A stretch of 64,000 nucleotides of DNA from Thamnaconus septentrionalis (Eukaryota > Chordata > Actinopteri > Tetraodontiformes > Monacanthidae): NCBI GenBank assembly GCA_009823395.1, contig CM020515.1, positions 14,739,489-14,803,488 on the forward strand, written 5' to 3'. The notes under the pieces were generated by a model. The model ran no database searches and had not been told where the DNA came from. It saw only the letters and a program-made list of their open reading frames with translations. This document shows, piece after piece, positions 58,805 through 62,786 of the stretch. Each line of letters opens with the position of its first letter. Within the stretch, counting starts at the first letter, position 1. Position numbers and translations under genes: made by a program.

Positions 58805-61800
58805 ATGAAGCCGTCTGAGATGGAGTCAAAATCTGAAGCCACCAAAGCCGAGCTGGTGAGACACTTTTAACATAAGTATGCTTGACGTGGATAGTTTTTC
58901 TTTTCCTTCGATTCCTTGTAATTTATTTGATACCTTAGTTCTTATTGAGTACCCATAGATAGATGGATAGATAAATAGATGTAGTCTAGAATTTAGATAT
59001 TTTTTGTATGCTTAATTGTTTTTGTAGCTTTTTGGTAATACTGTTTTAATAAATTATTGTAAATTTAAATTTACCCTTATTGTAGATTTGCAGTATTTTA
59101 TTTGAAAAAAATAATAATATTGAGATTGGAAAGTGATAGTTACTACATAACTGTTTTTGACAGGAATCCCCCGGACAGGAGCAGATGATCCAACTAATGA
59201 ATTACACGCAGCGCGGAAGAATGGACGAACAACGTTGTGCCTTGAGTCCTGTCATAACAAGACACACCAATAATATGCCTGACGGTAAGAATGAGGCATG
59301 CAAACCTACAAACTGGGTGGGGGAAAAAAAGAGTTTTTCTGGTGGGCATGTTGATTGTGGTCATTTTCAGCTAACAACAGTACTCTATCACAGTCGCAAA
59401 CACACAGCACGTGGATGACCTACAAGTGATGGCTCCAAGGTTCAACTATCAGGTAATGGAAGTCAGCTTGCAACGAGCCATCTGTTGTGATGAATTAATG
59501 AGTGAAATCTGCCCTGGACTGCGACTGTGTGTCAGGAACCTGGGATTCCCAGCCATCACGGCTCCGCGCCACACATCTCTGTGACTGAGAGCACCCCCGA
59601 GAGAAACAGGAGGCTCCTGTCAGTCCCAGCCAATCATCTGCAGGTTCCCACTCAGCAGCAACATTCAAGTTCCATAGAGGTACCTATGTGTTCCTGGCAC
59701 ATAAAGTACTTGACGAGTCTTTTGCCCTGATGATGAGTTTGATCCATGTCGGCTTTTCTGATTCAACAGGAAGGTTCACTCGAACAACAGGAAACATTTA
59801 TGAATTTGATCAACCATGGCCAGCGTGGACGTATGGACGACCAGTGCTGTTCTCTGGACCCCAGCAGGAGTGCTCCGTGCACGCCTAAAAACAACAGGAA
59901 AATCAATGTCAATAACGCAGGTGAGAATTGCTTGTGTTTATTTTTTCCTTTGCGTATTGTTTTGCTGTTTTCTTGCGCTTTTATTTTTCAATGTTTAAAT
60001 GAGTTTAATGATTTAATGTCCAGATTCGGACAAGCTCTTCAACCTTTTGGCCAACACACAGAGCCGGCGGCTCGATGATCAACGAGTGTCGCTCCCATCG
60101 CTGCCGGGATTACAGAAGCAACAGGAAACATCCACTTCAGGGTCGGATTCAAGCTATTTGTGTTACATGGTCTCTAAAGTACAGGTTAGCACCGTTTTGC
60201 AGAAAATATTGCTGGATCAATATGCTAAGGTGTTTTTTGTTTCCTTGCAATGACTTCTAACGTACTGCTCATAATGCATCTGCAGGGTTCTAGAATGGAA
60301 GACCAGAGGTGTTCGCTGCCACAAATCGTCACCACGGGGAAGCAGAGTGCACCAAAAGAGGATAGTCTATGCCCCACTCGTTCAGCCTCTTTTAATACCA
60401 GTTCAGACATAGAACGACCTAGGATTAAAGAGAAGCCTTCAGAAAAACAGGTATATATTCCAATATACCATTAAAATGAAACTAGAAAGTTTGGGGGGTG
60501 GAGGGGATCATTTATTCTTGTGGGCTAATTTTCAAAGAATTGAGTTTTCCCACTGAGTACACATTTATACTATCATTCAATTTATTTTATAAATTGTTGA
60601 CTTACCAGCTTTAAACACAGAGTCACTTTACACGTTTCCCTCAAGGTCTTCACTGAATCTGACCAGGACACCTTTTTAAACATTATGAGTAAATCCCAGC
60701 GTGGTCGAATGGACGAACAGCGATGTACCTTAAATATTAGTCCCAAGTCCACACCTACCCACAGTCCCACTCAGGACATCTTGCGCAAAGGTTTGAATTT
60801 AGTATCTTTACTTTTATATCTTTATTTTTAAGTTTTTATGGTACGATACGGGAGGTTCAAGTGATTTCACTACACATCTGTGACTGTTTTCACCTTCCCA
60901 GATGCAGATCCAGAAAAGTTTTTTTCTCTATTGGCCAACTCACAGGGCAGGCGGCTTGATGACCAGCGGCTTTCTCTGCCCTCATTGCCTGGGATACAGA
61001 ATGGAAACACAAAATCAAATTCTGCTTCCGAGGCAGATGCAGGCAACCTGTGCAATGTAATCGCTAGAGCCCAGGTTGGTCATCTGACAGACTGGAGATA
61101 TAAAAGATGTTTTCAGGATGCATTCCAAGTAATTTGATCTATTATCACAGAATTAGAAGTGAACAGTGGCTCATATTTCTCTCTCTCACAGGGATCAAAG
61201 ATGGATGATCAGAGATGTTCTGCACCCCAAATCTTACAGAATCTGAGTAGTCCGTCTCCTCGGCACAAAAGCCCTTCAGTTCCAGACACATCTGAGAAGC
61301 ATCAACAGGTTGGAAGGAATGTTGCACAGTGTGCACATTGTAAATCTGTCATCTTCACACTTAGAAAAATGTGACACTTTGAGACATTTTGTTTTTCTTT
61401 TGGTTCCTGTTTTAAGCTGTCCTACTTTTTTGTTTTGCCTTTCCCGTTTTTTTTAGGAGCTGTCTGCAGCCGACCAACAGCAGTTCCTCAAAATAATAAG
61501 TCATGCTCAAAGGGGGCGCATGGATGAGCAGCGCTGCTCTTTACAACCCAGCAGCGCACCCGCCTCCCCAGTGCGAAATGGGAACGCTATAAATAATACA
61601 GGCCACGGTTAGACAAACACGTGTTCTCAAGTTCAACAGTGCGTTTTCCCGCCTCTCACTCACCACACAAACAACCTCTGACACTTTTGCAACAGGTGCA
61701 GACTCTGAGGCATTGTTCAACATCATCTCCTCCAGTCAAGCGCGGCGAATGGACGACCAGCGCGTCACACTTCCATCCCTTCCGGGAATATCCGGGAACA

Positions 61801-62786
61801 CAGAGAGAAAAGGAAAGGTTAGAAAGGCGCAAAGAGAGAGAATGTGTCGAGATGTAGTTCTACAACATTGTTGAGGACGTGTTGGCTGAATCCACAGACA
61901 ATTGTGTTTGGCTCACACAAATCCGAGTTACACTGTGCTGAATACTAACCTTCAGGTTTTTAACCATTTTAAGGCCTCCCCGCCACACGTCGTTGTGGCT
62001 GAAAGCACACCAACAGTATCGAGGAGGGGTGATTCCAGACCCCCAACTCAACCCCTGGGGCCTTGCGGTGAATGTGGCTCTCCCAGGCCAATCCCCAAAT
62101 CTGCTTCCTTCACACTTGAGACAGAACATCAAAGGATGCAAAATTCCCAAGCGCAGGTAAACGTGTACTCATCATCGACATAGAACACAACCTTGTATGC
62201 ATTGTTTTTTGTTTCCTCCACTGAATGTCAAATTGAGCCACAGTGACACAAGTGCCAAGAGCATTTTTTCTGCAATTTGTTTCCAGATGACAGTGAAGGT
62301 ATCCATGAGCTTCACCCCACAAATGGTAAGCTGCCTCACAGTTTGTGTGCACTGTGTGGTAGTTGCTCAGTGTTTCAGAGGATGTGCTCCTTTAACTCTG
62401 TCACTTTCTCCTACTTGCCAAAGGGACATAAGAACATGGAACATCTTGGCCCATTTCCAGAAGTCTTCCTCACTGTTGGAGCCCCTGGAGATAACCTGGT
62501 GATCCCCCTGAGCCCAGTAGCTGGCAGACCTTTGTCTCTGAACCTAAACCTTGTCCCCAAGGAAGGCGCAATGTGCTCCTCAAATCGAGCGAGCCCGAGG
62601 CGAGCCCGTTCGAGGCCGTCGACACCCAACAAAAGTGCAAGCCCCATCGGTCCAGACGAGGACTGCCTCTCTGTCATTGAGAAGGTTCACACGGCCCAGC
62701 TTCAGAAGAAGGCAACTCCGGGACAGAAGCAGAAGAAAGGGAAAGTAGGTGCAAAGAAAGATAAGAAGGATAGCAGCAATAAATGA
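58805..62786 (+). CDS. pcp2: PCP2-like protein with an expanded GoLoco array
   Basis: GoLoco motifs bind Gi/o alpha in the GDP state and act as nucleotide-dissociation inhibitors. Fifteen exons join without a stop or phase conflict: 58805-58855, 59164-59284, 59394-59452, 59536-59679, 59770-59920, 60024-60184, 60286-60450, 60646-60790, 60902-61074, 61192-61308, 61457-61607, 61696-61817, 61956-62156, 62287-62325 and 62424-62786, for 720 residues. Nine motifs of the form Q-x-x-R/K-M/L-D/E-D/E-Q-R/C are visible, plus one relic. The last pair (FLKIISHAQRGRMDEQRCSL; LFNIISSSQARRMDDQRV plus TLPSLPG) matches the two motifs of mammalian PCP2, which also neighbours STXBP2. There are no TPR repeats, so it is not GPSM1/2. 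A basic, Ser/Pro-rich tail of about 120 residues ends the protein. Mammalian PCP2 is much shorter and acts in Purkinje and retinal bipolar cells; any tissue role here is inference. Confidence 0.85.
59164..59679 (+). repeat. pcp2: GoLoco module 1 (exons 2-4)
   Basis: Exon 2 (A) encodes a full GoLoco, IQLMNYTQRGRMDEQRCAL. Exon 3 (B), only 59 bases, encodes ANTQHVDDLQVM, which looks like a decayed form of ANTQSRRLDDQRVS in module 2 and lacks the arginine finger. Exon 4 (C) has no GoLoco but carries SVTESTPERNRR, similar to VVAESTPTVSRR in module 4. Phases are 0-1, 1-0 and 0-0. Confidence 0.8.
59770..60450 (+). repeat. pcp2: GoLoco module 2 (exons 5-7)
   Basis: Exon 5 (A) encodes FMNLINHGQRGRMDDQCCSL, in which the expected arginine finger is Cys. 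Exon 6 (B) encodes LFNLLANTQSRRLDDQRVSL followed by PSLPG. A third motif is split across the exon 6/7 junction: LCYMVSKVQ then GSRMEDQRCSLPQI. Phases repeat those of the other modules. Confidence 0.85.
60646..61308 (+). repeat. pcp2: GoLoco module 3 (exons 8-10)
   Basis: Exon 8 (A) encodes FLNIMSKSQRGRMDEQRCTL. Exon 9 (B) encodes FFSLLANSQGRRLDDQRLSL followed by PSLPG. The junction motif LCNVIARAQ / GSKMDDQRCSAPQI spans exons 9 and 10. This is the closest relative of module 2, sharing the split third motif. Confidence 0.85.
61457..62156 (+). repeat. pcp2: GoLoco module 4 (exons 11-13)
   Basis: Exon 11 (A) encodes FLKIISHAQRGRMDEQRCSL and exon 12 (B) LFNIISSSQARRMDDQRV plus TLPSLPG. This is the pair most like mammalian PCP2. 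Exon 13 (C) lacks a GoLoco and carries VVAESTPTVSRR, as in module 1. An alternative acceptor (AAG at 61971-61973) would remove six residues from exon 13 in frame. Confidence 0.85.

What the first reader, a model, noticed from the sequence alone, without database searches (positions are those of the whole stretch)
58805..62786. A PCP2-type gene expanded into four tandem three-exon GoLoco modules
Exons 2-13 form four consecutive A-B-C triplets with the same phase pattern (A 0-1, B 1-0, C 0-0), so each triplet can be duplicated without breaking the frame. The result is nine recognisable GoLoco motifs and one relic in a 720-residue protein. I recall two motifs in mammalian PCP2, four in GPSM1/2 and three in GPSM3. 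A linear scaffold able to hold eight or more Gi/o alpha-GDP subunits would be new in scale. The exon structure is read directly; the function is inferred.
Basis: partly seen in the sequence, partly recalled or inferred. Interest (0 to 1): 0.85.

Follow-up and report, generated by a model that had tools for sequence, protein, structure and literature searches.

The report
Fish PCP2 gene with nine GoLocos
A fish version of a small mammalian neuron gene has been lengthened by copying the same three-exon block until it carries nine G-protein-binding motifs instead of two; long versions, mostly with six to nine motifs and up to fifteen, turn up across bony fishes and appear not to have been studied.

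Summary
A 15-exon gene (58805-62786; 714 aa, not 720) has four A-B-C exon triplets of phases 0-1, 1-0, 0-0, nine GoLoco motifs and one relic. It lies just downstream of STXBP2 and resembles mammalian PCP2 over module 4. It is not peculiar to this genome: many teleost database proteins, often unnamed or misnamed, carry such arrays, mostly six to nine motifs, 12 in sea bass, up to 15 in cod models. I add: (1) The A-B-C unit is older than the array; two GPSM1/2-type genes in the same genome show the same motif order and the same two intron phases, one intron splitting the C motif. (2) A conserved C-terminal helix matches the GPSM fourth motif without its DQR. (3) Seven motifs keep the Arg finger nearly always; A1 and A2 lose it repeatedly, A2 here too, so eight sites are intact. 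(4) Unit number differs between lineages. Most likely a multivalent G-alpha-i/o-GDP binder with about twice the one-to-four motifs stated for described proteins. Function is inferred. A new variant of a known kind.

The parts
58805..58855 (+). exon 1 (start codon; phase 0 out)
   Evidence: several homologues begin with similar M(E/D)SKS residues
59164..59284 (+). module 1, exon A1: GoLoco type A, Arg finger present
59394..59452 (+). module 1, exon B1: relic GoLoco (HVDDLQVM); degenerate in most of the 53 aligned rows, intact in Myripristis P0038
59536..59679 (+). module 1, exon C1: C exon without GoLoco half
59770..59920 (+). module 2, exon A2: GoLoco type A with Arg finger replaced by Cys (TGC)
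60024..60184 (+). module 2, exon B2: GoLoco type B plus N-terminal half of the C2 motif
60286..60450 (+). module 2, exon C2: C-terminal half of GoLoco C2 (GSRMEDQRC) and RSASF tail
60646..60790 (+). module 3, exon A3: GoLoco type A
60902..61074 (+). module 3, exon B3: GoLoco type B plus N-terminal half of the C3 motif
61192..61308 (+). module 3, exon C3: C-terminal half of GoLoco C3 (GSKMDDQRC)
61457..61607 (+). module 4, exon A4: GoLoco type A (aligns with mammalian PCP2 motif 1)
61696..61817 (+). module 4, exon B4: GoLoco type B (aligns with mammalian PCP2 motif 2)
61974..62156 (+). module 4, exon C4: C exon without GoLoco half, KSASF tail
62287..62325 (+). exon 14
62424..62786 (+). exon 15: conserved C-terminal block, D-helix, basic tail, stop; no Pfam family
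62649..62690 (+). D-helix GPDEDCLSVIEKVH, counterpart of the fourth GoLoco of GPSM1/2-type genes, without RMDEQR
51460..57698 (+). neighbouring STXBP2 gene (Sec1 Pfam matches 51460-57520; C-terminal exon best matched by STXBP2; stop at about 57698)

Best explanation
This is the fish counterpart of PCP2 (GPSM4). Its coding region is a tandem array of an A-B-C exon unit that is shared with GPSM1/2-type genes and so probably was present in their common ancestor. SHOWN by computation: gene structure, unit homology, wide occurrence in teleost databases, conservation of the Arg finger at seven sites, decay at the N-terminal sites, different unit numbers in different lineages. INFERRED: each intact motif lays its helix on switch II/alpha3 of a G-alpha-i/o-GDP subunit and points the Arg finger at the GDP phosphates, so holding the subunit in the GDP state and away from G-beta-gamma. 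The long, probably disordered chain could then collect or buffer up to about eight subunits, a local G-alpha-i/o-GDP reservoir, in retinal bipolar and Purkinje cells if the mammalian expression pattern holds. The phases of the unit allow whole-unit gain or loss without frame damage, presumably by unequal crossing-over.
For: Model and phases; 9 Pfam GoLocos. STXBP2 just upstream on the same strand: Sec1 matches, C-terminal exon best matched by STXBP2 (83.0 bits, next STXBP1 76.7). Pcp2 and Stxbp2 are named together in the legend of the mammalian Retn neighbourhood (PMC4467842, passages; their direct adjacency is recalled). Three database models fuse Sec1 with GoLocos (P0055, P0109, P0114). [quoted passage not shown] Seal PCP2 against the window 77.8 bits over module 4, against the motif part of one GPSM-type gene 62.8 bits. 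Mostly A-B-C motif order in homologues. Tree of 69 motifs: A, B, C, D each one side of a branch with the GPSM motifs inside, SH-aLRT 76/94/82/90. Same A|B phase-1 and B|C phase-0 introns in two own-genome GPSM1/2-type genes. Arg kept where a letter is present: B2 51/53, C2 50/50, A3 53/53, B3 47/48, C3 51/51, A4 51/51, B4 51/53. A 770-aa ORF with 9 motifs on a contig of at most 3045 nt (P0030) = probable spliced transcript of a cichlid-like fish. Motif spacing 41-110 aa against 34-55 aa in a GPSM-type gene, so joint occupancy is not excluded by spacing. Arg-finger mechanism: PMC8252600, PMC12329598 (passages).
Against: No RNA from this species and no binding data. Arg is lost at A1 (26 R of 44 with a letter) and A2 (26 of 53), so not every site is needed. 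The motif tree has only 34 columns, 37 of 66 inner branches open, a long-branch warning for B with D, and puts seal motif B with a GPSM B motif (82), not with fish B alone. Motif order has exceptions: pike, cod, Metynnis and others. [quoted passage not shown] AlphaFold gave mean pLDDT 47 and helices at only four of the motifs plus the D-helix. Homologue counts rest on automatic gene models, isoforms included.
Confidence: 0.75

Rival explanations
1. The array is largely a slack, neutrally changing repeat: only one or two sites act, the rest are passengers of unequal crossing-over.
For: Motif number varies widely; Arg/not-Arg changes at least 13 times at A2 and 11 at A1 on a 53-row tree; B1 is degenerate in most rows; cod and eel hold near-copies.
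Against: Seven sites keep Arg in all or nearly all rows with a letter; of 42 rows with letters at all seven, 38 have Arg at all, in clearly diverged copies; motif entropy 0.39-0.89 bits at these seven against 1.26 in linkers. Rows are related, so they are not independent.
Confidence: 0.12
2. It belongs to the GPSM1/2 line and lost its TPR part; it is not PCP2.
For: Shares A-B-C-D motif order, intron phases and a D-helix with GPSM1/2-type genes; some databases call it GPSM2-like (P0026, P0090); seal motif B groups with a GPSM B motif.
Against: STXBP2 next door; some databases name it 'Purkinje cell protein 2 homolog' (P0004, P0077); separate GPSM-type genes at C8 and C18; seal PCP2 scores higher with the window than with the C18 GPSM motif part (77.8 against 62.8 bits); seal motif A lies with the fish A motifs (81).
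Confidence: 0.08
3. Two or more shorter genes or alternative transcripts share the locus, and no single protein holds all nine motifs.
For: Mouse Pcp2 is alternatively spliced (PMC5243870, passages); database isoforms differ in motif number (cod models 11-15); Nelusetta P0001 starts at the B1 exon.
Against: One frame runs through all 15 exons without an internal stop; the intron-free 770-aa ORF P0030 spans all modules; 34 of 154 proteins show exactly A-A-B-C-A-B-C-A-B. Alternative polyadenylation inside the array was not searched for.
Confidence: 0.05

Closest known systems
Mammalian PCP2 (L7, GPSM4)
   Same: STXBP2 in the neighbourhood; A then B GoLoco types; three coding exons, about one unit
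   Different: Two motifs in 120 aa (seal P0131, one isoform) against nine in 714 aa; no C motif, D-helix or exon 14-15 block in it
GPSM1/GPSM2 (AGS3/LGN)
   Same: A-B-C(-D) motif order, A|B phase-1 and B|C phase-0 introns, C motif split by the intron; AGS3 has four GPR motifs (PMC8252600, passages)
   Different: One unit only; D motif complete there, without DQR here; the TPR part of LGN/Pins (PMC3438535, passages) has no Pfam match here. The gene at C8 has one more intron between motif B and the first half of C
GPSM3 (AGS4)
   Same: Short GoLoco protein with several motifs (recalled); L011 on C11 may be it
   Different: Three motifs, other locus; not tested further
Piccolo b of teleosts
   Same: An exon amplified 8-16 times in a teleost neuronal protein, independently in several lines (PMC3484663, abstract and section 26 read)
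   Different: A single zinc-finger exon in one of two duplicated genes; here a three-exon unit of G-protein motifs

Membership tests
GoLoco/GPR proteins | Helix plus (D/E)-Q-R triad, Pfam PF02188 over its cut-off | tested here: met
   9 stretches, 188.1 bits against a cut-off of 25.1; 8 of 9 with Arg
PCP2 (GPSM4) | Locus next to STXBP2 | tested here: met
   Sec1 matches from 51460 to 57520 on the same strand, C-terminal exon best matched by STXBP2. Mammalian neighbourhood from PMC4467842 passages; direct adjacency there is recalled. PET100 untested: not completed
PCP2 (GPSM4) | Closer in sequence to mammalian PCP2 than GPSM1/2 is | tested here: inconclusive
   Seal PCP2 scores 77.8 bits with the window and 62.8 with the motif part of one GPSM-type gene, and its motif A groups with fish A; but its motif B groups with a GPSM B motif. 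The search could not list full-length GPSM1/2 because of its length limits
PCP2 (GPSM4) | Two GoLoco motifs | tested here: not met
   Nine; so it is filed as an expanded fish counterpart, not as a standard PCP2
PCP2 (GPSM4) | Expression in Purkinje and retinal bipolar cells | not testable with these tools
   No expression data at hand
GPSM1/GPSM2 | N-terminal TPR repeats | tested here: not met
   GoLoco is the only Pfam family over its cut-off in the 714 aa
Functional G-alpha GDI | Binds G-alpha-i/o-GDP and slows GDP release | not testable with these tools
   Needs purified protein

The most novel reading that the evidence does not exclude
Teleosts have turned PCP2 into an adjustable G-alpha-i/o-GDP sink: the number of A-B-C units (mostly six to nine sites, up to 15) sets how much inactive G-alpha a bipolar or Purkinje cell can store and how long free G-beta-gamma lasts. 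The N-terminal sites that lost the Arg finger, and the D-helix, would be docking sites that touch G-alpha without locking the nucleotide.
Probability: 0.3. Interest if true: 0.75.

Novelty: new variant of a known kind. Interest (0 to 1): 0.58.

Why it matters
Described GDI proteins are said to have one to four GoLoco motifs (PMC8252600, passages). A protein with mostly six to nine and up to fifteen, kept across teleosts, would be the most multivalent G-alpha binder that I know of. It offers a natural series of copy numbers to test whether valency matters in G-protein signalling, with mouse Pcp2 as the two-site baseline. It is also a clean case of tandem exon-block evolution, and it would put a name to many fish entries now unnamed or misnamed ('sialidase', 'cyclin-dependent kinase 12', 'mucin-5AC').

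Tried and rejected
Looked for non-teleost relatives to date the expansion. A 152-aa module-4 query gave 13 hits, one mammalian; an alignment query gave 288 hits, of which the 120 listed hold no named non-teleost (the other 168 were not seen, nor the 1405 beyond the list). Gar, bichir, shark, coelacanth and frog therefore remain unseen and the first duplication is undated.

AlphaFold on a 47-row alignment: mean pLDDT 47; Foldseek of it gave two matches, best E 7.3. Exon 15 has no Pfam family up to E 1. A generic GoLoco-helix profile gave the C-terminal helix of the window only a negative score, though the best of its non-motif 14-mers; the median over 89 proteins lay in the top 0.5% of a null that still contained some true motifs. 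Comparison with the GPSM D motifs was much clearer.

dN/dS between species could not be computed (no DNA of relatives held); between modules synonymous sites are near saturation. Literature: the nine answered searches of the held open library listed no paper describing an expanded fish PCP2; some searches listed only 20 of 175, 15 of 19 and 10 of 795 papers, and subscription papers are mostly not held. Two PCP2 papers were not held.

Considered and rejected: assembly artefact (modules too diverged); pseudogene (open frame, intact splice sites, seven conserved sites). One search failed in part and was redone.
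Full report
WHAT IS THERE. The gene was rebuilt from the DNA: 15 coding exons from 58805 to 62786, every intron GT-AG, one spliced frame of 714 residues. Pfam GoLoco is found nine times with E 1.2e-56. The only solved-structure sequence match up to E 0.01 is GPSM2, 4jhr_A, E 0.00078. Six of the eight other Arg codons are CGN and two are AGR, so TGC is what a CpG change would give.

NOT AN ARTEFACT. Motif cores of different modules are 49-71% identical in DNA, pS 0.61-1.17 (raw proportions, over 1 in places, i.e. saturated), pN/pS 0.19-0.45. 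The own assembly gives 18 GoLoco hits at C1, C3, C7, C8, C11, C15 (the window) and C18; those on C1, C3, C7 and C11 were not worked out, and an own-genome protein search for a second array did not complete.

IDENTITY. Sec1 Pfam matches lie at window 51460-57520 on the same strand. The exon at 57362-57520 is best matched by STXBP2 (83.0 bits), then STXBP1 (76.7), and the reading frame ends at about 57698 with nearly the same residues as the STXBP2 part of the croaker fusion model P0055, 1.1 kb before exon 1. Pcp2 and Stxbp2 are named together in the legend of the mammalian Retn neighbourhood (PMC4467842, passages only); the direct adjacency is recalled. The same paper found no conserved Retn neighbourhood in fish. 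Three database models of other fish run Sec1 and GoLocos together (P0055, P0109, P0114). A search with module 4 found 13 proteins, one mammalian, seal PCP2 at E 4.2e-10. It types as A-B and gives 77.8 bits with the window over module 4, against 62.8 bits with the motif part of the C18 GPSM-type gene. [quoted passage not shown]

NOT ONLY HERE. The 714-aa query gave 1525 proteins, the best 120 listed, the closest Nelusetta ayraudi at 96%. An alignment query gave 288, best 120 listed. The species named in both lists are teleosts (taxonomy recalled); a few rows, source 'lgn', have no name. Among the 153 proteins gathered (isoforms, fragments and near relatives included) 133 have five or more motifs, 40 have nine or more and 13 more than nine; the commonest numbers are 7 (35), 9 (27), 8 (26) and 6 (25). 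Pfam agrees where checked: seal 2, eel 10, sea bass 12, cod P0059 14 where the own HMM gave 15. Motif orders read A A-B-C A-B-C A-B in 34 of 154, ten intact in Myripristis, A-B A-B-C A-B in 12 (cyprinids and suckers among them, seven motifs; other models of these fishes have five or six), one more A-B-C in sea bass, repeated A-B-C in the two eels, a run of eight A in cod; pike, Metynnis and others depart from the A-B-C order. Cod and eel copies are near-identical, so recent or partly assembly-made; this needs long reads. Names given include sialidase, cyclin-dependent kinase 12, integrator subunit 3, mucin-5AC; a few say 'Purkinje cell protein 2 homolog'.

THE UNIT IS OLDER THAN THE ARRAY. Two genes in the same genome (C8, C18; fetched) carry A, B, C, D motifs and are taken as GPSM1/2-type from this order alone; their TPR part was not looked for. 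Read by eye, their A|B intron is phase 1, and a phase-0 intron splits the C motif after the same Gln; the C8 gene has one more intron between motif B and the first half of C. A tree of 69 motifs (77 minus 8 duplicate or partial rows) puts A, B, C and D each on one side of a branch with the GPSM motifs inside, support 76, 94, 82, 90. It has only 34 columns, 37 of 66 inner branches open and a long-branch warning, and seal motif B falls with a GPSM B motif. Within it A1, A2 and C2 of filefish, Seriola and Myripristis group by position (98, 99, 95) and B4 with 94, so modules 1, 2 and 4 were probably separate before holocentrids and percomorphs parted.

THE D-HELIX. The last exon holds a conserved helix, GPDEDCLSVIEKVH here. 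Against the C18 GPSM D motif VPDEDFFSLIQRVQ it is the best 14-mer of each of nine fish proteins tested; against the C8 D motif it is first in seven and second in two (window, Seriola). The shad form SPDEDYFSLIQRVH is identical at 11 of 14 places. For the Seriola and window tails 0 of 5000 shuffles reached the C18 score. RMDEQR is missing. A generic GoLoco profile alone gave the window's helix a negative score. AlphaFold makes it a helix with block pLDDT 79 and 71, in a chain of which 574 of 766 residues are below 50; it shows helices at only four motifs besides (the model is of Seriola P0004).

WHICH SITES MATTER. In 53 aligned rows (window plus 52 of P0001-P0054; two under 600 aa dropped; isoforms of one species included) the Arg finger is kept in B2 51/53, C2 50/50, A3 53/53, B3 47/48, C3 51/51, A4 51/51, B4 51/53, but in 26 of 44 in A1 and 26 of 53 in A2 (16 Cys, 10 Ser, 1 His). 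On a tree made from the columns after these two motifs A2 needs 13 changes between Arg and not-Arg, A1 11. Of 42 rows with letters at all seven core sites, 38 have Arg at all. Mean entropy is 0.39-0.89 bits in the seven core motifs, 0.91 and 1.05 in A2 and A1, 1.26 in linkers, 0.83 in exons 14-15. So a core of seven looks constrained and the N-terminal end is fading.

EXPRESSION. Only indirect: protein P0030 (source tag 'lgn', which I take to be assembled read archives) is a 770-aa intron-free ORF with nine motifs on a contig of at most 3045 nt, 45 member sequences, 80% identical to the cichlid model P0035. By the window's structure a genomic copy would be broken by about 14 introns.

HOW IT PROBABLY WORKS. 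The GPR/GoLoco helix binds at switch II/alpha3 and the Arg of the D/E-Q-R triad reaches the GDP phosphates (PMC8252600 and PMC12329598, passages). PCP2 acts on Go and, through it, on Cav2.1 (PMC6585000, passages, which says that it stimulates GDP release). A chain with eight intact triads, motifs 41-110 residues apart, could collect several G-alpha-GDP. That is inference. Published GDIs are said to have one to four motifs, which is the measure of novelty used here; the nine answered searches of the open library listed no account of the fish array (see Tried and rejected).

PRECEDENT. Piccolo b in teleosts has 8-16 copies of one zinc-finger exon, gained more than once (PMC3484663; abstract and section 26 read). 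The present case is of the same evolutionary kind with a three-exon unit.

VERDICT. Real, conserved, apparently unstudied; an expanded variant of a known family, not a new kind.

Noticed in passing
window 62649-62690: C-terminal helix matching the fourth GoLoco of GPSM1/2-type genes but without DQR; present in the nine fish proteins tested.
   Followed up: yes
window 60286-60450 and 61974-62156: RSASF/KSASF sites in C exons, recurring in several homologues; might be kinase sites.
   Followed up: no
window 59770-59920: Recurrent change of the A2 Arg finger to Cys or Ser across percomorph rows.
   Followed up: partly
P0059, P0066 (cod): Run of eight near-identical A-type motifs, 14-15 GoLocos in all; possibly still changing or assembly-dependent.
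   Followed up: partly
window 19388-20281, minus strand: 297-aa ORF that looks like a lysophosphatidic-acid-type GPCR (by eye; no search run).
   Followed up: no
window 28287-31556, minus strand: Long polyglutamine/proline reading frames, BRD4-like by eye (no search run).
   Followed up: no
window 63760-64000, minus strand: What looks like a myosin heavy chain tail exon (by eye; no search run).
   Followed up: no
L012 (C7:92000-101500): Further GoLoco gene with three motif matches, not assigned.
   Followed up: no
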